DNA from: Ischnura elegans
Lineage: Eukaryota; Arthropoda; Insecta; Odonata; Coenagrionidae
DNA length: 64,000 bases
Reading direction: 5' to 3'
Assembly (NCBI RefSeq): GCF_921293095.1
Contig: NC_060257.1
Location: forward strand, 54,224,968 to 54,288,967
Positions 12,248 through 60,282 of the stretch are shown one piece after another. Position numbers and translations under genes: made by a program. Every line of letters starts with the position of its first letter. Position 1 is the stretch's first letter. The notes under the pieces are model-generated. The model ran no database searches and had not been told where the DNA came from. It was given only the letters and a program-made list of their open reading frames with translations.

Positions 12248-15200
12248 ATGAGGATGAATGCGACTACAGCGGTCATCGCTTTGGCTGTTATAGCCAGCGC
12301 TTCGAGTGAGTACCTAAACAGTCACGTTTATTTGTAGATAGATGCACAGACATTGAGAGCACCCATAACTCACTCTTTACCGGTCGTGTTTTGTGTATTT
12401 TTTGTGTATTTGAGCGACGGATTTCTCTCGTAACCCATTTCCGGCAAGAAAAATGTCTGCTTGCGATTTTGAAGATATTAATGAGCTCCGCTCCTATATT
12501 GTCGTCTTTAAGTTATCTTTCGAAAATATTTTAATGGCGCTCAGGGCTGGGCATTATTCCAAATATAAGTATTTTAAAATGCATATTTGAAATACATTTG
12601 TAATCTTTACTTGATATTTCATATACACGACTTGAATGCATCTTGCATTTTGACTTCATGTACAGATTTTTAGTATATTACAAAATTTAAAACACGAAGA
12701 ATAATTATATAAAACACGAAGTACTCCGACCATGAATAACGAAATGGTCGAAAGTTAAAACAAAACACTCAGTATAACGGCTAAAAAATAACTTTCGACT
12801 ATTTCGTTATTTATGATAGGAGCACTTCGTGTTTTATATCATTCTTCTCAGCTTTTTTGGTACTTTAAAAATATGCTATTAAGATTGAGATATTATGAGA
12901 AAGTAAAAAAAGTTAATAATTCTATTAGAGGTGCTAGTTGCCTTCGTCGGGGGGAGGAAAGGGACGGGCGAACGGACCCACCAACTACCTGTGTCGTTCC
13001 TGTACAGTTTTTTTGTCGGTCCTTTCCTACCCTCCTTTGCTCGCGGCTCTGGTACTTCGCGGACCTGTACGCCAACTTACGGTGTAAACAGTATAAACTA
13101 ATTTTAACACTTTTCATATTCGCAAAAATAATTTGTTAAAGAAAATTTGGTAAATTCATGATTTTTCTATATTTTGTTTTCATTTATGAAGGAGAATAAT
13201 TGTGCTTTTATATTTCGGGGGGGTGTCCGGACCCCGCGTATCCCCCCTGGCTACGCCACTGGGTGCAACACTATGACTGGCAACAGTGCAACAACGATAG
13301 GTGACAAGGCTGCGACAGGTACTGCAGCAGAGTCAACCTGGCTGTGGAACAGGCAGGCTAGCCCTGCTTGTCAACATTATTCGTCTCAGTGGCGTAACTA
13401 TGGGGGGGGGGGGGGTGGTGAGGGAGTAGATCCCCCCCAAAAGGCCTCAGATAAATAACAAAATATATTTAAAGCTATTGCCTAATTTTGACACATAACA
13501 ACTGCATCTGCTTTAAGTTCAATCTTTAAAAGGGAAGGTGATGTAAAATGTATTTCCAGGCATGTCATTTTTCAAAACGTTTACCAGATTTTGCCCGTCG
13601 GGGAGGGGGTCGCCAACTCAGGCCATCTCATCCCCCCCAAGGCATACTCCTAGTAACCCCACTTATTCATCTCATTCTTTTGTCAACATTATTCATCTTA
13701 TTCTTTCCCAAGGCTTCCGAGTGCCCAATGGGCGACCGCTACTTGACGGGAGAATTGTTGGTGGGGAGGATGCAGCCCCCGGAGAGTTTCCTTACCAGGT
13801 AAGGAATAAGATCAAGGGCACACCTAGGATCAAAACTTGGGTGGGGGGGTGGCAAACCATTGTTGTTCAAGTTATAGGTAAGATTTAAGCATGGAAAAGG
13901 TGAATGAAATCAACATTTTGAGAAAACTGTAACGGCTCCTTATTAGTTTTTAAAATTATTTGGTTGAAAAAATATTATTTTCCTTAAAAACATATGCAAT
14001 TTTTGTTTTTAGAGGGGGCAGCTGCCCCCTCCTGCCCCTCGCTGGGTACGCCCACGACTAAGATCATCAATATTATCACTGGTCAACGATCCTAAGATTG
14101 GTTTTACGCAGCTCTACACTCAATTCTACTATTAGCTATGATCCGTTTAAAATATTTTAATGACCGGCATTGTCCTGCAATTTCGGAAGGTTTTGATTTT
14201 TGGTTTTATTGCCTAGTTTTGTTTTTATGGCCAAAATTGAAAGCCATCCACAGAGCCAGTGGTACATCGAGGGAGGTTCCGACCCTGCCCTCCCCTCCCG
14301 CGGGAATATAAAAACACAATAACTTCTTGAGAATTAATTATATTTTAACAAAATATTTTATAAAATGAAGTTTTTTCCGATTGTAAAAAGTGTTTAAATT
14401 AGTTTAAAACACACTACTTAGTTCCCTGATTTTCAAAAGTTTTCCCGCGAACTTCCCTGGTTCAACCCTTGTTTTAGATTCCCGCCCCGAAGAAAATTCC
14501 TGGCTGCGTCACTGTGTGGAGCCCTGTCGTTTATTTTATTTAATTTATTTAAATCTGCATGTTTAAACCATATTTTCTTCATGTATATGACCTCGTGTCC
14601 AATTTCTCCTATTCCATCTTTCAGCTCTCCTTGAGAATAGGCGGATATCACATCTGTGGTGCATCCATCTTGAGCGAAGACTGGGCCGTGACTGCAGCAC
14701 ACTGCTTAGACGAGTGAGTATCAACGAGAAACAGAAACTTGTATCCAATGGCCGTGACGTAGGTATTACTTCATAGGTGCAAAAAAATACTGTGTTGGTT
14801 TGCTGGAACGGAAGAATTCGCAGCAGTGACCATGAGCGTATCCAGCGGGGGTCAGGAGGGGTCAGCTGCCCCCCACACCCCCATTAAGAAAAAATTGCAA
14901 AAGTCTTTAAGGAAAATTAGGACTGGATGGAAATGAAAGTTTTCAACAATTTTTACATTTTCTTTAAACTCATGTATTAGACATGTTACAAAAATAATTT
15001 TTTTTCCTGCAAATAATTTTTAAAACTAATAAAGTGCTGTTTTCTAAAAATTAAATAAAATTTTCTTAAAATGCTGGTTCCTTTCACCTTTCCCATGCTA
15101 AAATATTACAACTTGAACGGCCTTAGCTTACCCTCCCCTAGTTTTGATCCTGGGTTCGCCCATTGACAATGACCTGCCCAAGCTTCTCAACCGGAAATCG

Positions 15201-18200
15201 CTGCCAAGCACTAATCTCACATGAGATTGGTCAAAATGCGTATTTTCAGTATAAAAACGTTAATATATGCTTCATTTTAGTTGCGTTGCAATGCATTCAT
15301 TGCGTGGGATTTATTTAAAATAAAAACAACTGCTTTTGCTATTTTTATGTAAGATAAGTTAAGGCTAGTATTTAAGATAACTAAGATCATAGTCTATAAT
15401 CACATTTTACACTGATTCTTGCGGAAAAAAATTACGTGACACTGGCCCCCTCTCCCCAACGTGAGATGGAGTGAGAATCGGCTCAACCCCCTCCACTAAA
15501 CGACTCACGTAATTAATGGATGCCGCCTAAACCGTTGTGGAGTTGTGTTCAGCGTTTCGCCCAATCTTTGTTATTCACGCAGCGAATTTTTTTTGGCTCC
15601 AGCCATACGCAGAAAGATCAGTTCGTCACCATCACAATAGGGTGGTTTCCTATTATTTTTTTATTGCCTTAATCGAAAGATTATTACTCCTGGAGTACGT
15701 ATTTCACGCTTTTAGATTTTTAAATGACAATATCTATTTTTCGCGATTAAATGAAAATTGAAAATTTTCAAGCGCGCAAAAACGCGACGCTCAAGTATGA
15801 ATGCCGGGAAATATCTCCGTACCTCGTATTTCTGGTTCCCCCTCCCGCCCGGTGAGGTGACCTTGAGGCGAGCCTTAGCGCTGATACGTCGCAGACTGCC
15901 AGCAGGTAGCTGAGTTCCTTGTTGAATGGTAGCACTTGGCATAAAAAAGGTTTATTAATACCTTATCAAACGAAGAAAACTTTCCGACCTCAGCCAGTTT
16001 TTGTAGGTGATTATTAAGACATGTTTCCCTGGGCTCTGTGCCTCATGCATGCATTGGTAACCTCAGACGATGTATTACTCCTATCCTCTCGTGTAGAAAC
16101 TAGGTCCCTATGACGTCACGTGGAGTGGAATCGCATGGGCGCCAATCTGGCCTTTTTCAAATGAGGATAAAATTTGACCCTTGCCATTCGTCAAAACCGG
16201 TATTTCAAAAACCAAATAATTTGTGTATTATGAATACACTAATAGTGGGTAACGAATCGTAATCAATGCCTTTCGTTTTCTTTGATGAAGGAAACTAGCC
16301 TATTGTTATGCATTGTTACATGTTGCAGGATAATTACACTTTCTGTGCAATTGCCTAGGTTTTTCAACATACGAACAAGGTCTCGGAATGTGTCTTGTTC
16401 GTATATTGAGAACTTTCTGTGCCTGCCTTCAATACCCTTTTTCCTGACTGTTGGTGGCTGGACAGGAGAGAGCTAGTAACCAATAGCATATTCAATCCTT
16501 GCTCCTTTAGAGAAACATGCTCCATATATCAGTGGCGTAGTGATGGGTATTTTTGGGGATACCCCCCCAGAACTCAGTGAAATCTTAAAATTTAATAGAT
16601 TTTACTTAATTGGATATATTTTACCTATAGAATAGTGTAAGAATAAAATATTCCTCAGTAAGCCGTTAAACTCACCATTTTGAGCTATTTATCTTAAATA
16701 TTTCTGGGGGAGGGCACCCACTCCTCCCTTATTGCATATCCCCCAGTATTAGTGTCTCCTAAATCCCCCCTAGCCTTAATTCCTAGCTGCGCACCTGCTA
16801 TATTCATCAGATGCTTTATATATGCTTTGTTTCCTTACTTCTACGCTTGTACTCTCAGGTGTAAGGAGATTCTTCTTTTTGTAGAAAGCCCTCTTCAACT
16901 GCACTATTCTACTGATGATTTATTTCTCTCTGATTCCTTTGTTGGTAACTCGGCTTCTTAGATCCAATGGATCCTTCCTGCTGGTGGATAATAAAATGGA
17001 GTATTGCTGTTCTCTTTATTTTTCACTCTTCATTACAATAGATCAAAATAATAGTGAACCACCCACGTTCTCCAAATAGCAATTTTTTCTTTGAACATGA
17101 CAGCTACAGGATAACTATGTATAGTGCTTGAATGGAATCCTTCATGCAATTGTGGCCAATTATTACCTTTCAGTGTGGGTCGCAAACGCCTGCAGCTCAT
17201 GGCTGGTTCTCTTGACGTTGATGAGGGGGACATTTATCATGTAACTTATTTCACTGTTCACCCCAATTATGATCCAGTCACCGTAGACTGGGATATGGCA
17301 GTACTCAAGGTAATTTTTTGTTCTTCTATAGCTATATGGGTATGAGATAAAATATTAAAATATGTTACTAGAAGACCACTAATTTTTGTTTATTTTTCTT
17401 TTTGTTAGTTGTATTTGAATATTTAATAATAGTGTTTTAGTACACATAGACGAATCCAGGGGGGAGGGCACGTGCCCCCCTCCCTGAACCTTAAAAAATA
17501 TGCAAGATTTTTAATACGGTCCCATTATCATTGCGTTCATTTTGTATTAAGAGGTATACTTGTGCCCCACCAGAAGAAAATCTTGGACACGGCCTTCCTT
17601 CCCCCCCCCCCCAGAAAGAAATCCTGGATCCGCCCCTGTTAGTACAAACTGCTATTTTTATACTTAAAACATATGCTGACGACTTTTTGTTAAATAATTT
17701 CCTGAATATTTATAAAACTTTAATCTTTAAGTATAAAGATTTTTAAAATTTAATTAATTTTGTAGTGAATATTTTGGATATTGTATTAATTTATATTTAA
17801 TTATATTTTATTAATGTATATTTCAATGTATTAGGGTATTAGTTTATATTCGTACAAGAGCGTTTCTGAGTTGATTTGGTGGAAGTACAATATATATCCA
17901 TGTTGAAGATCACAAATGATAATTACCACATTTTTAAATGCAACACTCAACAACCGACCATGGTTTCAACATCTAGCGCCATTTTCACTTTGAAATGACA
18001 CAATGTGTTGAATCCATTGGAGGTTGTTGAGTTTTGGAGTTAAAAAGTGTGGAAATTACCATTTGTGTTCTTTCACCATGAGTTAATTTATGTTGTTGTA
18101 ATTTTGAATATTATATAAATAAATGAATACTTATTTCAATATATTAACACAAATTTTTTTCCATTTTCAGTTGCTCAAAAAATGTATATAATTTTTTCTC

Positions 18201-21715: not shown

Positions 21716-21845
21716 TATTTCAAATAGGGTGGTTTCCTTTTTATTAATTGCCTAAATCGAAAGATACTAAAGAAATACGTACTCCTGGAGTGCGTATTTC
21801 ATGCTATTTGATTTTTAAATGACGATATCTAATTTTCGCGATTAA

Positions 21846-24970: not shown

Positions 24971-25167
24971 TTAAACGAAAAGTGAAAATTTTCAGACTGA
25001 TACGACGCTGGATACTAACAGATGGCAGAGTACCTACTAGCTGGTAGCACTTGGCTTCAATAAGTATTATTAATACTCTATCAAACAAAGGAAACTTTCC
25101 AACCATGGGCAATTTTAATTGGTGATTATGAAGAGATGTTTCTCTGAGTTCTGTGCCTCATGCATGC

Positions 25168-27724: not shown

Positions 27725-30324
27725 CGATATGTAACCCCATCCACTTATCACCACCATTGTCCCAGCATCCAGCTCCTCTCCTTCTGCAGGCAATGCAATA
27801 GGAGACACTGTACAACTGAAGACAAAAGGTGTTGAGACCTGTAATATGAAATGAAATGAGTTTTATTAATGGCTCTGAGACTGTAAAGTTTTAAAATATA
27901 TTCAGGAAATTATTTTTAAAAATTCGTCAGCATACGTTTTAAAGTAAAAAATAGCAGTTTGTACTAACAGGGGCGGATCCAGGATTTCTTTCCGGGGGGG
28001 GGGGGGGAAGGAAGTTTATATCCAGGATTTTCTTCTGGGGGGGCACAAGTATACCTCGTAGTGCAAAATGAACGCAATGATAATGGGACCGTATTAAAAA
28101 TCTTTCATATTTTTAAAGGGTCAGGAAGGGGGGCACGTGCCCCCCCCTGGATTCGTCTATGTATACTAAAACACTATTATTAAACATGCAAATACAACTA
28201 ACAAAAAGCAAAATAAATAAAAAATTAGTGGTTTTATAGTAACTCATTTAATAATTTATCTTAAACCCATATAGCTATAGAAGAACAAAAAATTACCTTG
28301 AGTACAGCCATATCCCAGTCTGTGGTGGCTGGAACATAATTGGGGTGTACAGTGAAATTAGTTACATCATAAATGTCCCCCTCGTGTACATCAAGAGAAC
28401 CAGCCATGAGCTGCAGGCGGTAGTCACCCACACTGAAAGGTAATTATTGGCCATAATTGCATGAAGGATTCCATTCAAGCACTATAGTTATCCTGTAGCT
28501 GTCATCTTCAAAGAAAAAATTGCTAGTTAGGAAGAACGTGGGTGGTTCACTATTATTTTAATCTATGGTAATGAAGAGTGAAAAATAAAGGGAAAAGCAA
28601 TAGTCCATTTTATGATCCACCAGATGGAAGGATCCATTGGATCTAAGAAGCCGAGTTACCAACAAAGGAAGCAGAAAGATATAAATCATCAGTAGAATAG
28701 TGCAGGCAAAGAGGGCTTTCTACAAAAAGAAGAATCTCCTTACACCTGAGAGTACAAGCGTAGAAGTAAGGAAACAATTCATCAGATCCTATATATAGCA
28801 GGTGCGGAGCTAGGAATTAAGGCTAGGGGGGATTTAGGAGAAACTAATAGTGGGGGATATGCAATGAGGGAGGTGTGGGTGCCCTCCCCCAGAAATTTTT
28901 AAGATAAATAGCTCAAAATGGTGATTTTAATGGCTTTCTGAGCAATATTTTATTCTTAAACTATTCTATAAATAAAATTTATCCAATTAAGTAAAATGTA
29001 TTAAATGTTAAAATTTCACTGAGTTCTGGGGGGGGGGCTTATCCCCAAAAATACCCATCAATGCGCCACTGATATATGGAGCATGTTTCTCTAAAGGAGC
29101 AAGGATTGAATGTGCTATTGGCTACTAGCTCTCTCCTGTCCAGCCGTCAAAGGTCAGGAAAAAGGGTATAGATGGCAGGTACAGCAAGTTCTCAATGTAC
29201 GAACAAGACGCATTCCGAGACCTTGTTCGTATGTTGAAAAACCAAGGCATTTGCACGGAAAGTGTAGTTAACCCAACAACATGCAACACTGCATAACAAT
29301 TGTGATGGTGACGAACTGATCTTTCTGCGCGTGGCTGGAGCCGAAAAAATTTCGCTGCGAAAATAACGAAGATTGGGCGAAATGCTTAACAGTTCCCGAC
29401 TTCACAACGGTTTAGGTGGCATCCAATAATTACGTGAGTCGTTTAGGGGATGGTGTTCAGCCGATTCTCACTCCGTCTCATGTTGGGGAGAGGGGGCAAG
29501 TGTCACATAACTTTTTTCCGCAAAAATCAGTGTAAAATGTGATTATAGACTATGATCTTAGCTATCTTAAATACTAGCCTTAACTTATCTTACATAAAAA
29601 TAGCAAAAGCAGTCGTTTTTTTAAATAAATCCAACACAATGAATGCATCGCAACGCAACTCAAATGAAGCATATATTAACGTTTTTACACTGAAAATACG
29701 CATTTTGACCAATCTCACGTGAGATTAGTGCTTGACAGCGATTTCCGGTTGAGAAGCTTGGGTTGGTCATTGTCAATGGGCGTACCCAGGATCAAAACTA
29801 GGGGAGGGTAAGCCATGGCCGTTCAAGTTGTAATATTTTGGCATGGGAAAGGTGAATGGAACCAGCATTTTAAGAAAATTTTATTTAATTTTTAGAAAAC
29901 AGCACTTTATTAGTTTTAAAAATTATTTGCTGGAAAAAAAATTCTTTTTGTAACATGTCTTATACTATTATCATTTTACATGAGTAAAAGAAAATATAAA
30001 AATTGTTGAAAACTTTCATTTCAATCCAGTCCTAATTTTCCTAAAGACTTTTAGGATTTTTTCTTATTGGGGGGGAGGGGCAGCTGCCCACTCCTGACCC
30101 CCGCTGGGTACGCCCATGGTCCCTGCTGCGAATTCTTCCATTCCAGCAAACCAACACATTAATTTTTTGCACCTGTGACGTAATACCTACGTCACGGCCA
30201 TTGGATACGAGTTTCTGTTTCTCGTTGATACTCACTTGTGAACGCAGTGTGCGGCAGTCACGGCCCAGTCTTCGCTCAAGATGGATGCACCACAGATGTG
30301 ATGTCCGCCTATTCTCAAGGAGAG
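27725..30324 (-). pseudogene. Trypsin-like fragment B (exons 3-5 only)
   Basis: Minus-strand exons 30324-30236 (89 bases), 28432-28297 (136) and 27838-27725 (114) have exactly the lengths and phases of exons 3, 4 and 5 of gene A. They encode the His region (TAAHC), the Asp region (TDWDMAVLK) and the SGWG segment, with no stop or frameshift. Exons 6 and 7, with Asp189 and Ser195, were not found downstream; exons 1 and 2 would lie in or beyond the N gap. A deletion just after exon 5 changes the donor from GTATGTG to GTACACT. Against gene A, about 15 codons differ in sense and about 5 silently. It is probably a non-functional partial copy, or an exon donor if the scaffold is misjoined. Confidence 0.75.
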
Positions 30325-30648
30325 CTGAAAGATGGAACAGGAGAAATTGGACACGAGGTCAAATACAAGAAGAAAATAAAGTTTAAACATGCAGATTTAA
30401 TTATAAATTAAAAAAAATTTACGGCAGGGCTCCCGCAGTGATGCAGCCAGGAATTTTCTTCGGGGCGGGAATCTTAAACCGGGGTTGAATCAGGGGAGTT
30501 CGCGGGAAAACTTTTGAAAAATCGGGGAAACTAAGTAGAGTGTTTAAAACTAATTTAAACACTTTTTACAATCAGAAAAAACTTCATTTTATAAAATATT
30601 TTGTTAATATATAATAAGTTCTCAAGAAGTTTTTCTGTTTTTATATTT

Positions 30649-30679
<31 letters not shown>
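30649..30679. repeat. Poly-G run beside the assembly gap
   Basis: About 30 consecutive G bases sit in the G-rich end of the hAT-like MITE copy matching 14250. The run is 51 bases before the N block and probably caused the assembly break. Confidence 0.8.
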
Positions 30680-30682
<3 letters not shown>

Positions 30683-30730
30683 GGTCGGAACCCCCTTCGA
30701 TGTGCCACTGGCTCTGTGGATGGTTTCCAA

Positions 30731-30930
30731 NNNNNNNNNNNNNNNNNNNNNNNNNNNNNNNNNNNNNNNNNNNNNNNNNNNNNNNNNNNNNNNNNNNNNN
30801 NNNNNNNNNNNNNNNNNNNNNNNNNNNNNNNNNNNNNNNNNNNNNNNNNNNNNNNNNNNNNNNNNNNNNNNNNNNNNNNNNNNNNNNNNNNNNNNNNNNN
30901 NNNNNNNNNNNNNNNNNNNNNNNNNNNNNN
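30731..30930. other. Assembly gap (200 N)
   Basis: Exactly 200 N. Left of it is an inverted (minus-strand) trypsin fragment and right of it the middle of a plus-strand trypsin gene. The missing sequence must contain at least exons 1-4 of gene C if the join is correct, so the true gap is probably several kilobases, or the join is wrong. Confidence 0.95.
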
Positions 30931-37235: not shown

Positions 37236-47916
<10,681 letters not shown>

Positions 47917-48731: not shown

Positions 48732-48900
48732 TCGTCTACATAATACCCTGTGAGCCACCTCTAGGGTGTTTGGCAGGGGGTGATCAATCACCAGCATGCA
48801 GCATGCATTTGGACTCCCACATGCACACCACACGGTCCAAAAAACGTCACGCATACTAACACATTATACTACCAGATGCTATTAGAAATAATAATAAAAT
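48732..48900 (-). repeat. Retroposon tail copy
   Basis: GTCTACATAATACCCTGTGA, then GCCACCTCTAGGGTGTTTGG and 'gatcaatcaccagcatgcagcatgca'. It matches the complement of 53910-54076 over more than 100 bases. Confidence 0.6.
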
Positions 48901-49589
48901 TCAGATACATGCATTAAGTTACACATAAGTTAGTTGGCTTCACTACAAGTGATCTAATCTATTTGTGATTTCTAACGCTGCCGTTTTGATCTCTTATTGA
49001 CCGTGGAAAAAAAGACATTCCGAAGAATCATGTAATGGATTAAACCAGAGCTTCTACTGCAATTTCTTCTCAATCAATTCAACTAATTTAATCCATTGAG
49101 AAAATTTACAACTATTTTTCCATAAGGAAATGTATTTAATTAATTGGAGCACAAATTTCAAATGCTTGATTTTTCAACATTTCAAGCCGATCCGACATGT
49201 GTGTTAAAAATCAATCACTTAATTCCGTCGAGGAGACAAACAAACAGACGATGCGAATTAAAAATAAAGCTTGTAAAAAGGAAAATGTTAGTTTCAACCT
49301 CAAAAACATGAGGATTTCTCGATCCCTAAGACACTAAAACAGTGAACACCCTTGTGCGGGAAATTTAAATCTTTGGACAGAAGGCTTCCGCGGAGTGGTG
49401 TCGATGATTGGCTGCTTTCAGGTTCTCTCCCGCGCCTGTCCATCTCAGGCGACGACATGTTTCGCAAACGCAGCAGCAACGCTGCAGTTTGATTCTTCAG
49501 GTCCGAAGTGTAGAATGCAGTTGGTGATTTCCTTGTATACACCTTTCCTTCAGCCGGGGGCCGGTTCGTTTTTTGTGCGCCTTCTCGTT

Positions 49590-51522: not shown

Positions 51523-52185
51523 AGGGTGGTTTCCTTCATCAAAGAAAACGAAAGGCATTGATTGCGATTCGTTACCCACCACTAGTGTATTCATAATATA
51601 CAAATTATTTTGTTTTAGAAATACCGGGTTAGACGAATGGCAATGGTCCATTTTTATCCTCATTTGAAAAGGGCCAGATTGGCGTCCATGCGATGCCACT
51701 CCACGTGACGTCACAGGGACCTAGTTTCTATACGAGAAGATAGGAGTTATACGTCGTCTGAGGTTACCATTGCATGCATGAGGCGCAGAGCTCAGGGAAA
51801 CATGTCTTAACAATCACTTATTAAAACTGGCTAAGGTCGGAAAGTTTTCCTCGTTTGATAAGTTATTAATAATCCTTATTTAAGCCAAGCGCTACCAGCC
51901 AGCAGGGTACTAGGCTAGCCGCTAGCAGCCTGCGTCGTATCAGCGCTAAGCCTCGCCTCAAGGTCACCTCGCAGGGCGGGAAGGGGAACCAGAAATACGT
52001 CACGCGGAGAGACTTCCCGACATTCATATTTAAGCGTCGCGTTTTCGCGCGCTTGAAAATTTTCACTTTTCATTTAATCGCGAAAAATAGATATCGTCAT
52101 TTAAAAATCTAAAAGCGTGAAATACGTACTCCAGGAGTAATAATCTTTCGATTTAGGCAATAAAAAAATAATAGGAAACCACCCT
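51523..52185 (-). mobile_element. 0.66-kb MITE, AGGGTGGTTTCC family
   Basis: Ends AGGGTGGTTTCCTTCATC and AATAGGAAACCACCCT, flanked by AT on both sides (51521-51522, 52186-52187). It is the same 663-base length as the copy at 15639 but in opposite orientation. Non-autonomous. Confidence 0.8.
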
Positions 52186-52611: not shown

Positions 52612-53033
52612 CCACCCTGGTGCGAGGCTAGGAGCGCCCCTACGATGCAGGCTGCTAGCAGGTAGCGCTTGGCTTAAATAAGGATTATTTATACCTGATC
52701 AAACGAAGGAAACTTTCCGACGATTGGCAATTTTAATAGGTGATTATTAACACATACTACCCTGAGCTCTGTGCCTCATTCATGCATTGGCAATCTCAGA
52801 CAATGTAAAACTCCTGACTACTCGTATAGCATCTGGGCCCCTGTGACGCCACGTGGATCGGCACCGCATGGGTGCCAATCTGGCCTTTTTCAAATGAGGT
52901 TAAAATTGACCGTTAATTTTCGTCTAAACTTGGATTTTTAAAACCAAATAATTTGTGTAATACGAATACACTAATGGTGGGTGACAAATCGCAATCAATG
53001 CCTTTCGTTTTCTTTGATGAAGGAAACTACCCT
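52612..53033 (+). mobile_element. 5'-truncated AGGGTGGTTTCC MITE
   Basis: It enters the family at 'gcgaggctaggagcgcc...gatgcaggctgctagcagg' and runs to the right end GAAGGAAACTACCCT. The first third is missing. It is more diverged than the copies at 51523 and 54351. Confidence 0.7.
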
Positions 53034-53909
53034 ACTAGCAATACGCTGGCATAATTAAATCGAGTCTTACCCATGAAATATTTCCCAGAAAGACGAATCC
53101 AGTCAAAAAGACGAAAAATACGAAATTAAATTTATTTCTACGTTGGATAATTTACTTCAAAAATGTTCTTTCCCGATGCTATTTCTTGTTCTTAATTTTT
53201 TCTGAAAAAGTACCCGTTTTTGCTGGCAAAATAAATTTCCCCAACTTAGAGCACTAGGTATTTCCATAATTTTCGTTCCAATTACTTGGAATTTTAGTAT
53301 AAGAAAGCCAAATCCGAAAATAATTTTTTTATATCTCGAAAATTTATATATTGGTTGTAAACAACGTAAATCTTGGCTAACTTCCGAAACAATGGATCAA
53401 TTGAAAATTGATTGGTTCCGATGTATACTCTACGATGAATTGAAGACTAGTATTTATAACATTTACAGTAAATATCACTGATAAAGTCAATATCGCTTAT
53501 TATTTATGTACATACATGGTTTCATACGCGTAACGGTAGCTCCGTCGTGGTAAAGGGAGGATAAAAGAGGCGCGTGGTTGCCACCGATTCGCCATAAACA
53601 AGCAGTGGATGATTCATAAACTGCCGGGGCACTGTGCGTCACGATGCACGATATGGCAAATACGCACTACTTTGCGAGACTTTCCCTTATCTGTCGCTTT
53701 GTTTTGGCCTGCCTCAATAGGCAGAGAAAAAAGCGACTACAAGAGCTCAATACAAAAATATATATCAAACGATATTGAATATGCTGTTGAAATTTAACGT
53801 GTATTAACTACATACCTGCATTACTTACATTCTACGGCACACAAAGATACTAATCAATATTTAATTGCTAACCTATGGAAAACTTAATGCATATTTCTTA
53901 ATTTTATTA

Positions 53910-54076
53910 TTATTTCTAACAGCATATGGAGGCATAATTTATTAGTATATGTGACGTTTTTTGGACCGTGAGGTGTGCATGTGGGAGTCCAATTGCATGC
54001 TGCACGCTGGTGATTGATCACCCCCTGCCAAACACCCTAGAGGTGGCTCACAGGGTATTATGCAGATGTAGATGGA
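53910..54076 (+). repeat. Retroposon tail copy (contains an empty MITE site)
   Basis: It reads '..ggtgtgcatgtgggagtccaattgcatgctgcacgctgg..' and ends GGGTATTATGCAGATGTAGATGG. The CAATTG here corresponds to the position that carries a MITE in the next copy (54254-55125). A short repeat of the tail end follows at 54077-54118. Confidence 0.65.
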
Positions 54077-54253: not shown

Positions 54254-55125
54254 GTTAATTTTATTATTATTTCTAACAGCACATGTTAGTATATTTTGTT
54301 AGTATCCGTGACGTTTTTTGTAATGTGTGGTGTGCATGTGGGAGCCCAATAGGGTAGTTTCCTTCATCAAAGAAAACAAAAGGCATTGATGGCGATTCGT
54401 TACCCACCATTAGTGTATTCATAATACACAAATTATTTGGTTTTTGAAATACCGGTTTAGACGGATTGCAAGGGTCAAATTTTATCCTCATTTGAAAAAG
54501 GCCAGATTGGCGCCCATGCGATTCCACTCCACGTGACGTCACAGGGACTTAGTTTCTACACGAGAGGATAGGAGTTATGCATCGTCAGAGGCTACCAATG
54601 CATGCATGAGTCACAGAGCTCAGGGATACATGTCTTAATAATCACTTATTAAAACTGGCTAAGGTCGGAAAGTTTTCTTCGCTTGATAAGGTATTAATAA
54701 ACCTTTTTTAAGCCATGCGCTACCAGACAGGAAGGTACTCAGCTACCCGTTAGCATCCTGCGTCCTATCAGCGCTCAGAGCCTCGATCAAGGTCACCTAC
54801 CAGGCGGGAGGGGGAACCAGAAATGCGTCGTACGGACTTTTTCCCTTCATTCCTACTTATGCGTCGCGTTTTCGCGCGCTTGAAAATTTTCACTTTTCAT
54901 TTGATCGCGAAAAATAGATATCGTCATTTAAAAATCTAAAAGCGTGAAATACGTACTCCAGGAGTAATAATCTTTCGATTTAGGCAATAAAAAAATAATA
55001 GGAAACCACCCTATTGCATGCTGCATGCTGGTGATTGATCAGTGATTTGAACGGGGGTGATCAATCATCACCACCGTTCAAACACCCTAGAGGTGTCTCG
55101 CAGGGTATTTTGTAGATTTAGATGT
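54254..55125 (+). repeat. Retroposon tail copy interrupted by a MITE
   Basis: The left part, 54254-54350, ends 'gggagcccaat'. The right part resumes at 55013 with 'attgcatgctgcatgctggtgattgatca' and ends 'gtagatttagatg'. The interruption is the 662-base element at 54351-55012. Confidence 0.7.
54351..55012 (-). mobile_element. 0.66-kb MITE, AGGGTGGTTTCC family
   Basis: Ends AGGGTAGTTTCCTTC and GGAAACCACCCT, flanked by AT (54349-54350, 55013-55014). Comparison with the sister retroposon at 53910 gives the empty site CAATTG, independently confirming a 2-base AT duplication. Confidence 0.82.
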
Positions 55126-58395: not shown

Positions 58396-59783
58396 TTAAA
58401 TTGTATTTGAGCTAAAATAACTTTTATATTTATTTCTAATGTCCAAAGCAGATTGGGTAGGTCTGTTCCCAGTTTGTTGTGGTAGCACTAGTAAAGGGCA
58501 GTCACCTTCAGCATTCCCGGTGTATGCAGCACCATTCTTTTCACAAAGAAAATTGTGCAGCCCTACTGCTGCCAAAACTGCACTTTCCACCTTCTCCGGG
58601 CTCAGGTTGATAGTAGTCAGGAAAACTCTGAAGCGGTTGCTCAATATCCCAAACGAATTTTCTACGACTCTCCTAGCCCTTGAAAGCCTGTAATTGAAAT
58701 TTCTCTTCTCCTCATCCAAGTCCCTGCTTGGATACGGCTTCAAAATGCGAGGAGTTAGTGGGAAGGCCTCATCGGCAACAAAAACGTACGGCACCTCTGC
58801 TTGCCCATGGGGTAGCCTTCTATTTGGTGGAAAGTTCAGGGTGTTGCAGGGTATAGCTTTGCACAAAGTACTCTCGCGGAATACTCCGCCATCACTCACC
58901 CTTCCATTGACTCCGACGTCAACATAAATAAATTTGCATTGAGCATCAGCGACTGCCAGTAGTACAATCGAGTGGCTACCCTTATAATTAAAAAAGTAGG
59001 AGCCAGCACTGGCCGGTGGGCTAAAAGCTATATGCTTCCCATCCATGGCACCCAGACACATGGGGAAGTTCCACAGGCTGCTGAACTTCTCAGCGATATT
59101 TTCCCACTCCTGACATTTCCGAGGAACCTAAAACAGGAATGAACCAATGAAACCAACCTTCGCCTTCAATTTTAATCATCAAACGTTCTTCATAATTCGT
59201 CTTCCTTATTAAATACCTGGAGATATTTTCCTTTCAAGTTGCGATAGATACTCATGCACACCTCAGGAATGATTTTGCTAATGGTGCTATGATGAATTCT
59301 GGTTGCATACATCAACGAGCGGTAGGCTTCTCCCGTGGCTAAAAACCGTAACGTTAACGATAACCTATAAGAAAGGAGTATATTCTATTAAATAAAGTCT
59401 ACCTAAAAATAAAATACAACGAGATAACACTTTCATAAACAAATAATGACCTCCGTGTCCGATTGATACCTTTTTTCTGCAAATATAGACTCCCGGATTG
59501 TCGTGTCCTGCTTTTCTATGTCATTTCTGATGAGGCGTAAGATTTCGTGAAATTGCTCTTCAGACATTCGCATAAAATTGCGGAAGGCGTTCGCATCCTT
59601 GACTGCTAACTCCCGATGTACCATATGCAATAAACCGCGGCCACCTTCTCTTCTTTGGATCCACGGCCGAGTCCAAACTGATCTCCTCCTCCTCCGCACA
59701 TTCTTCATTGTTCCTACTACTACCATCATTGATATCAATATTATTACGGCTGCGGCCGCAGTCCTGTCGTCGTCAAAATCCAT
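58396..59783 (-). CDS. PIF/Harbinger transposase (HARBI1-like), 3 exons
   Basis: Minus-strand exons 59783-59470, 59364-59217 and 59127-58396 (stop TAG) join in frame (phases 2 and 0) to give 397 residues. I chose the ATG at 59783 (MDFDDDRTAAAA), whose acidic start followed by an RRRRR run fits the family; an upstream ATG at 59861 is also open. Exon 1 has FMRMSEEQFHEILRLI, exon 2 LTLRFLATGEAYRSLMYATR and exon 3 the DDE_Tnp_4 nuclease: Asp183 in GAMDGKHI, Asp233 in GRVSDGGVF and Glu310 in RVVENSFGIL. All three catalytic residues are present and no stop or frameshift was seen. It would excise and insert its element in the nucleus with the help of the neighbouring MADF protein. Activity is plausible but unproven. 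Confidence 0.88.
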
Positions 59784-60282
59784 AATAAAAATTATAGGCA
59801 CTTTTGTAAACTCGTCAACAACTGAACAAGCTGAATACGACAGTTGCAGTGATGATTTCACCGGTTATCGCCAGATGGAACTACCGTACACTTATAAAGG
59901 AGAAAAAGGTAATTGAATATGACATAAATAATTGCTCTTTGATTGTCTGCTTGTGGTTTGACCTTTTGAAATAAGCGCGTTTTGATTGTAAACAAAAGCA
60001 ATCGCACATTGCGTTACCTAAAATTGTGTGAAAACTTGTGCGTAGGCAATCACCGTGTAACCGCCCATTCATGAATTCCGTTCACGCAAATGTACATGTT
60101 TTCGTGCATGAAACGGGACATGCATTCGTACATTAACCCGTACGAGATAATGTACCGTGTAAACAGGCCTTCTGAACTGGAAGTGGTTCCATTGAATGGG
60201 CCTTAGTTTGGCTGTATTTAATTTATTTACACGCGTTACTTTCAACAAGTCTTTTATAATTCCAAAATAGCATGCCTCCACA

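What the first reader, a model, noticed from the sequence alone, without database searches (positions are those of the whole stretch)
15637..16303. MITE family with an AT (not TA) target duplication, proven by two empty sites
Filled sites at 15639-16301 and 54351-55012 can each be compared with an uninterrupted homologue in this same window: CAATTG at 29297-29302 (inverted trypsin copy) and CAATTG in the retroposon at about 53985. In both, inserted DNA plus one extra AT explains the difference exactly. Copies at 51523 also sit in AT..AT. Known TA-target families (Tc1/mariner) do not predict this, since an empty TA site would read CAATATTG. The superfamily of this AGGGTGGTTTCC element is therefore unclear and may be new.
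Basis: partly seen in the sequence, partly recalled or inferred. Interest (0 to 1): 0.7.

Follow-up and report, generated by a model that had tools for sequence, protein, structure and literature searches.

The report
Abundant AT-target ISL2EU-type miniature transposon

Summary
In the 1.72-Gb host genome AATAGGGTGGTTTCCT occurs 20,789 times (reversed control 0). In the 40 scored copies most like the window's, flanking dinucleotides agree on both sides in 40 of 40 (39 AT/AT, one GT/GT) and the target is AATT in 39 of 40. The GT/GT copy favours a true 2-bp duplication over insertion between A and T. The first site is uninterrupted in 13 close paralogues and filled in 2, so the empty state is ancestral. 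'Superfamily unclear, maybe new' is not supported: AT duplication inside A|AT|T is the published signature of the ISL2EU group (PMC4482050, passages). The genome carries ISL2EU-type elements (HTH_Tnp_4, DDE_Tnp_4, convergent YqaJ; THAP shown in one) whose 5' end reads AAT|AGGGAAATTGC at four unrelated sites. A full-length partner with the exact 13-bp TIR was not found. The closest published parallel is ATon of Aedes aegypti (ATAGGCC ends, AT sites), whose partner and superfamily were left open in 2012; it may be ISL2EU-type too.

The parts
15639..16301 (-).
   Evidence: 90.9% identical to 54347-55016; ends AGGGTGGTTTCC and GGAAACTAGCCT
15637..15638 (.). Left copy of the AT target-site duplication (other copy 16302-16303)
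   Evidence: the empty paralogue has AT once
29297..29302 (-). Empty site CAATTG in the inverted paralogue
   Evidence: 12 further close paralogues span the junction, one of them read directly (L097, CACAATTGTTATGC)
54351..55012 (+). Full-length young MITE copy (662 bp) in a dispersed retroposon-like repeat
   Evidence: mean 98.8% identity to 29 other genomic copies (L002-L030)
54349..54350 (.). Left copy of the AT duplication (other copy 55013-55014)
53990..53995 (+). Empty site CAATTG in the homologous repeat copy
   Evidence: 39 of 40 scored genome matches span the junction
48735..48933 (-). Third copy of the repeat, uninterrupted at the site (CAAATG)
51523..52185 (+). Full-length MITE copy (663 bp) flanked by AAT and ATT
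52652..53034 (-). Partial MITE copy (one end plus interior, about 84% identity)
24997..25167 (-). Internal fragment of the MITE (77-80% identity)
21723..21845 (+). End fragment of the MITE (AGGGTGGTTTCC at 21726)

Best explanation
The element is a non-autonomous cut-and-paste DNA transposon of the ISL2EU group of the PHIS (Harbinger-like) superfamily. A THAP/HTH/DDE transposase made elsewhere in the genome recognises the short terminal inverted repeat AGGGT(G/A)GTTTCCT, excises the element and inserts it into AATT. A 2-base stagger around AT (A|AT|T) is filled in by repair, leaving AT on both sides. Shown here: the anatomy, the duplication, the AATT target, the abundance, the near-identity of the best-matching copies, and the presence in the same genome of ISL2EU-type coding elements with the same AAT|AGGG boundary. 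Inferred: that an ISL2EU transposase moves it, the cut positions, and the staggered-cut chemistry.
For: (1) 40 of 40 scored copies have the same dinucleotide on both sides, 39 AT and one GT (30, 10); target AATT in 39 of 40. One of the 40 is the window copy itself; L026 and L027 have mirrored flanks and are one insertion duplicated, so 39 sites are independent as far as I checked. (2) The GT/GT copy (L019) fits duplication; insertion between A and T would need an unrelated A-to-G change in the last base of the element as well. (3) Empty sites: 13 spanning against 2 filled close paralogues, each filled one matching query 1-200 and 199-400, a 2-base overlap; 22 further stretches of 70-83% identity also span the junction. 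39 spanning repeat copies. (4) Published signature: AT TSD, target A|AT|T, THAP-HTH-DDE transposase plus YqaJ protein (PMC4482050, passages). (5) The genome has HTH_Tnp_4, DDE_Tnp_4 and YqaJ matches in convergent pairs. One such family begins AAT|AGGGAAATTGCAT at four sites with unrelated flanks: L066 and L089, L093, L096; each of the four has HTH, DDE and YqaJ rows beside it; a THAP match (E 6e-12) was shown in L066 only. AATAGGGAAATTGCA occurs 648 times against 2 for its control. Two of the four read CAAT|AGGG; among the MITE copies C stands at that place in 19 of 30. (6) No long frame: at most 79 codons between stops in six copies examined.
Against: No full-length partner carrying the exact TIR was found. 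Of 20 YqaJ loci scanned two had a MITE end: one lies beside a stretch that matches the MITE over at least 205 bp, the other beside a YqaJ element with its own, different end. Flanks of three transposase/YqaJ pairs gave nothing closer than 2 mismatches in 12 to the TIR. The MITE and the ISL2EU-type family share only AGGG plus the target. The right end of that family was not reached; on C1 its left end is about 0.7 kb from the HTH match, against 1.4 kb in C9 and C12. PMC4482050 says ISL2EU TIRs usually begin GG; here AGGG. Among 16 older copies chosen because the left flank was not AAT, 6 had a recognisable right end near the expected distance and 2 of the 6 agreed (AT/AT, AA/AA); a mirrored pair with exact ends 434 bp apart (L078, L079) disagreed, AT/GT. 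I read these as decay or rearrangement.
Confidence: 0.88

Rival explanations
1. Tc1/mariner (Stowaway-like) MITE with a TA duplication and termini GGG...CCC.
For: The flanks read ...TA[GGG...CCC]TA..., which looks like a TA duplication if empty sites are ignored.
Against: The empty site would then read CAATATTG. The four empty sites read directly are CAATTG three times and CAAATG once.
Confidence: 0.01
2. Insertion without duplication: element TAGGG...CCCTA placed between A and T (Spy-like or Helitron-like insertion).
For: For AT targets this gives the same letters; the ATon paper could not decide between the two for its elements (PMC3422177, section 4 part 1).
Against: The young copy L019 has GT on both sides, a single case. 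Spy prefers AAATTT and leaves no duplication (PMC11304231, passages); none of the 40 inferred targets is AAATTT. Inverted termini at both ends argue against Helitron (recalled knowledge).
Confidence: 0.06
3. A new superfamily with AT targets, unrelated to ISL2EU; the shared AAT|AGGG boundary of the ISL2EU-type family is convergence.
For: No coding element with the exact TIR was found.
Against: The ISL2EU target signature is met, and ISL2EU-type coding elements with the same boundary tetramer exist in this genome.
Confidence: 0.05
4. The empty sites are precise excision products, so they say nothing about the target.
For: Cut-and-paste elements can excise (recalled knowledge).
Against: 13 uninterrupted against 2 filled close paralogues and 39 spanning repeat copies; repeated precise excision from all of these is not credible, even though the lists favour uninterrupted copies.
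Confidence: 0.01

Closest known systems
ISL2EU group (PHIS / Harbinger-like superfamily)
   Same: AT duplication, target A|AT|T confirmed by empty sites, short TIR; coding relatives of this type in the same genome (HTH, DDE, convergent YqaJ, THAP shown in one) with the same AAT|AGGG boundary
   Different: Non-coding; termini begin AGGG, not the usual GG; exact-TIR coding partner not found
ATon MITEs of Aedes aegypti (PMC3422177)
   Same: Short TIR elements, empty sites with a single AT, conserved A and T outside an apparent TA, terminal ATAGG (ATAGGCC there, ATAGGGTGG here), first catalogued as TA MITEs, many identical copies
   Different: ATon-I and ATon-II are 112 and 144 bp with 294 and 317 complete copies; here 662 bp and more than twenty thousand exact ends; no interior comparison made
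Spy group (PHIS)
   Same: AT-rich palindromic target; sister clade of ISL2EU (PMC11304231, passage)
   Different: Spy targets AAATTT and leaves no duplication
Tc1/mariner Stowaway-like MITEs
   Same: Short TIR, apparent TA at the ends
   Different: TA empty site not seen

Membership tests
ISL2EU group | 2-bp AT target-site duplication | tested here: met
   39 of 40 AT/AT, 1 of 40 GT/GT, 40 of 40 concordant; older copies agree less often
ISL2EU group | Target A|AT|T | tested here: met
   AATT in 39 of 40; AATT frequency in the window 1.1%
ISL2EU group | Paralogous empty sites with AT once | tested here: met
   one further copy reads CAAATG
ISL2EU group | TIR of 6-259 bp | tested here: met
   13-bp TIR with one mismatch
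ISL2EU group | TIR usually begins GG (a tendency in PMC4482050, not treated as defining) | tested here: not met
   Begins AGGG; the ISL2EU-type coding family of this genome also begins AGGG
ISL2EU group | Coding relative with THAP-HTH-DDE transposase plus YqaJ protein and the same TIR | tested here: inconclusive
   Such elements exist with the boundary AAT|AGGG, but none was found with the exact 13-bp TIR
Tc1/mariner | TA duplication, empty site with TA | tested here: not met
   Empty sites CAATTG or CAAATG
Spy | AAATTT target, no duplication | tested here: not met
   0 of 40 inferred targets AAATTT; the GT/GT copy indicates duplication
Pangu | ANT 3-bp duplication | tested here: not met
   AAT on the left, ATT on the right; 2-base overlap with empty sites
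ATon | TIR element at AT with ATAGG termini | tested here: met
   Termini ATAGGGTGG against ATAGGCC in PMC3422177; ATon is a descriptive label without a transposase, so this is likeness, not descent

The most novel reading that the evidence does not exclude
The orphan class of AT-specific MITEs, including ATon of Aedes aegypti, whose superfamily and partner were called mysterious in 2012, consists of ISL2EU derivatives. This family points there by combining a true duplication (GT/GT variant) with ISL2EU-type coding elements that share the AAT|AGGG boundary. Such MITEs may need little more than a terminal ATAGG and a short TIR to be moved by ISL2EU transposases.
Probability: 0.65. Interest if true: 0.4.

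Novelty: new member of a known kind. Interest (0 to 1): 0.3.

Why it matters
It places one very common short repeat of a 1.7-Gb genome in a known transposon group. With empty sites on two backgrounds and one GT/GT variant, it gives evidence for true duplication rather than insertion between A and T, the point the ATon authors left open. It offers a testable answer to the classification of ATon elements. No paper in the searched library holds both 'ATon' and 'ISL2EU' as whole words (0 papers); subscription papers and Repbase entries were not searched.

Tried and rejected
YqaJ loci as partners: of 20 scanned, L042 and L048 carried MITE ends. Beside L042 the fetched DNA matches the MITE over 205 bp up to its edge, so I take it for a neighbouring MITE. 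L048/L051 has a 42-bp MITE end beside a different YqaJ element; independent copies of that element lose similarity at CCCCTTAA (L060, L061, L063; L062 reads CCCCTGAA), away from the MITE end. A second YqaJ family starts TTAAGGGG in L038, L041, L042, L043 and L045 (L036 reads TAAGGGG), seen at one end only. A pattern for MITE-like ends that continue differently gave 20 places: 7 are the L051 locus and its duplicates; the other 13 lie at least 90 kb from the nearest YqaJ, HTH or DDE row listed, those lists being capped. The '228-aa' transposase copy L072 has no close MITE end within the 3.6 kb fetched. Flanks L066-L071 of three transposase/YqaJ pairs, and L031, L039, L049, had nothing closer than 2 mismatches in 12. 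CCCTATT in L039 lies between transposase and YqaJ and was put down to chance. The 16 copies with non-AAT left flanks were mostly diverged and gave a weak test. As single-stranded DNA the MITE folds better than each of 20 shuffles (z -2.25); I draw nothing from it. The host species was not identified. Papers: PMC4482050, PMC9179366, PMC11304231 and PMC9587614 seen as passages; PMC3422177 as abstract, passages and section 4 part 1. AGGGTGGTTTCC occurs in 7 papers, by title unrelated to transposons (listing only).

Full report
The observation. The window holds three full-length copies of one element (15639-16301, 51523-52185, 54351-55012; pairwise identity 90-91%) and three fragments. Each full copy reads AAT[AGGG...CCCT]ATT, except that the right end of the first reads AGCCT. 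Alignment breakpoints at the first site overlap by exactly two bases. A third copy of the repeat around the second site is also uninterrupted but reads CAAATG.

Genome-wide test. The window lies in a 1.72-Gb genome of 110 contigs. AATAGGGTGGTTTCCT occurs 20,789 times and its reversed control never. AGGGTGGTTTCCT occurs 23,798 times against 47, so 87.4% of these ends follow AAT. In 30 of 30 copies read in full, one end is AGGGTGG and the other AGGGTAG, so the count suggests ten to twenty thousand copies or fragments (inference). I examined both ends of the 40 copies scored, out of 4,337 first-look candidates. They were picked by similarity to the window copy, and one is that copy. The flanking dinucleotides agree in 40 of 40, 39 AT and one GT, and the target tetramer is AATT in 39 of 40. 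L026 and L027 have mirrored flanks and count once. Among L002-L030 the mean pairwise identity is 99.7% over 406 pairs, a young burst as far as this selected sample shows.

Duplication or insertion between A and T. For AT targets the two cannot be told apart. The young copy L019 has CAGT on the left and GTTT on the right, as duplication of GT predicts; the other reading needs a second, unrelated A-to-G change. This is one case. In 16 copies chosen for a non-AAT left flank, 6 had a recognisable right end near the expected distance and 2 of the 6 agreed (AT/AT, AA/AA); a mirrored pair with exact ends 434 bp apart disagreed (AT/GT). I read the disagreements as decay or rearrangement; that set adds little either way.

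Polarity. A query of joined flanks at the first site gave 41 rows: 13 close paralogues spanning the junction (10 on C12, including the window's own empty site, and 3 on C7); 2 filled loci (4 rows), whose pieces match query 1-200 and 199-400; 1 locus split differently (2 rows); and 22 stretches of 70-83% identity that also span the junction. One empty and one further filled locus were read directly: CACAATTGTTATGC, and CACAAT[AGGG with CCCT]ATTGTTATGC. At the second site 39 of the 40 scored copies span the junction. Both lists are ranked by score and so favour uninterrupted copies. Even so, the empty state is plainly ancestral at both sites.

What it is. PMC4482050 (passages) describes the ISL2EU group by an AT duplication, target A|AT|T confirmed by empty sites, a THAP-HTH-DDE transposase and a second ORF with a YqaJ domain. 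The MITE meets the target features. The genome contains 150 scored YqaJ matches, 133 HTH_Tnp_4 matches and 150 DDE_Tnp_4 matches; 150 is the tool's scoring limit. Several HTH and YqaJ matches lie 1-3 kb apart on opposite strands. In one such family, the copies at C9:114968811 and C12:37954807 begin to resemble each other at AATAGGGAAATTGCAT. The same boundary stands in a third flank on C19 and a fourth on C1. A THAP domain lies about 0.3 kb inside the boundary in L066. The 15-base terminus occurs 648 times (control 2). So ISL2EU-type coding elements here share the AAT|AGGG boundary with the MITE, though not the rest of the TIR.

What is missing. No coding element with both AGGGTGGTTTCCT ends was found. 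Two of 20 YqaJ loci with a MITE end nearby appear to be neighbours, and two YqaJ families have TTAA at the end seen, so YqaJ alone does not identify ISL2EU in this genome. The right end of the ISL2EU-type family was not reached.

Relation to the literature. ATon elements of Aedes aegypti (PMC3422177; abstract, passages and section 4 part 1) are TIR elements with ATAGGCC termini and empty sites with one AT. The authors could not decide between duplication and insertion between A and T, and found neither partner nor superfamily. The present family resembles them and points to ISL2EU. No paper in the library holds both names.

Verdict.

Noticed in passing
window 58396-59127 and 59433-59864, minus strand: A Harbinger-type transposase: DDE_Tnp_4 (E 8e-32) and an upstream ORF with no Pfam match that may be its N-terminal exon.
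   Followed up: partly
L036, L038, L041-L043, L045 and L060-L063: Two families of YqaJ-coding elements have TTAA at the end seen in most copies (5 of 6 and 3 of 4), Kolobok-like in target, so YqaJ seems not to be confined to AT-target elements here.
   Followed up: partly
L053-L059 (C1, C3, C5, C7, C9, C19): The same YqaJ locus recurs at about 97-98% identity in seven places on six contigs, six of the seven within 2 Mb of a contig end, suggesting subtelomeric segmental duplications.
   Followed up: no
window 14237-17722 and 27884-30730; C12:54.1-54.8 Mb and C7:84.2-84.5 Mb: A cluster of duplicated segments around the first insertion: 16 loci by the junction query, 13 on C12 and 3 on C7.
   Followed up: partly
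L026 and L027 (C1:124663102 and C1:124658034): Mirrored flanks around the MITE about 5 kb apart: an inverted duplication that includes one insertion.
   Followed up: no
L078 and L079 (C1:1923845 and C1:2357932): A mirrored pair with exact MITE ends 434 bp apart and unlike flanking dinucleotides, perhaps a nested or rearranged MITE copied in inverted orientation.
   Followed up: no
window 47254-47613, 255-448, 17899-18080: Stretches that match their own reverse complement at 77-81% identity: large imperfect palindromes, possibly foldback elements.
   Followed up: no
window 30731-30930: A run of 200 Ns (assembly gap) next to the end of the inverted duplicated segment.
   Followed up: no
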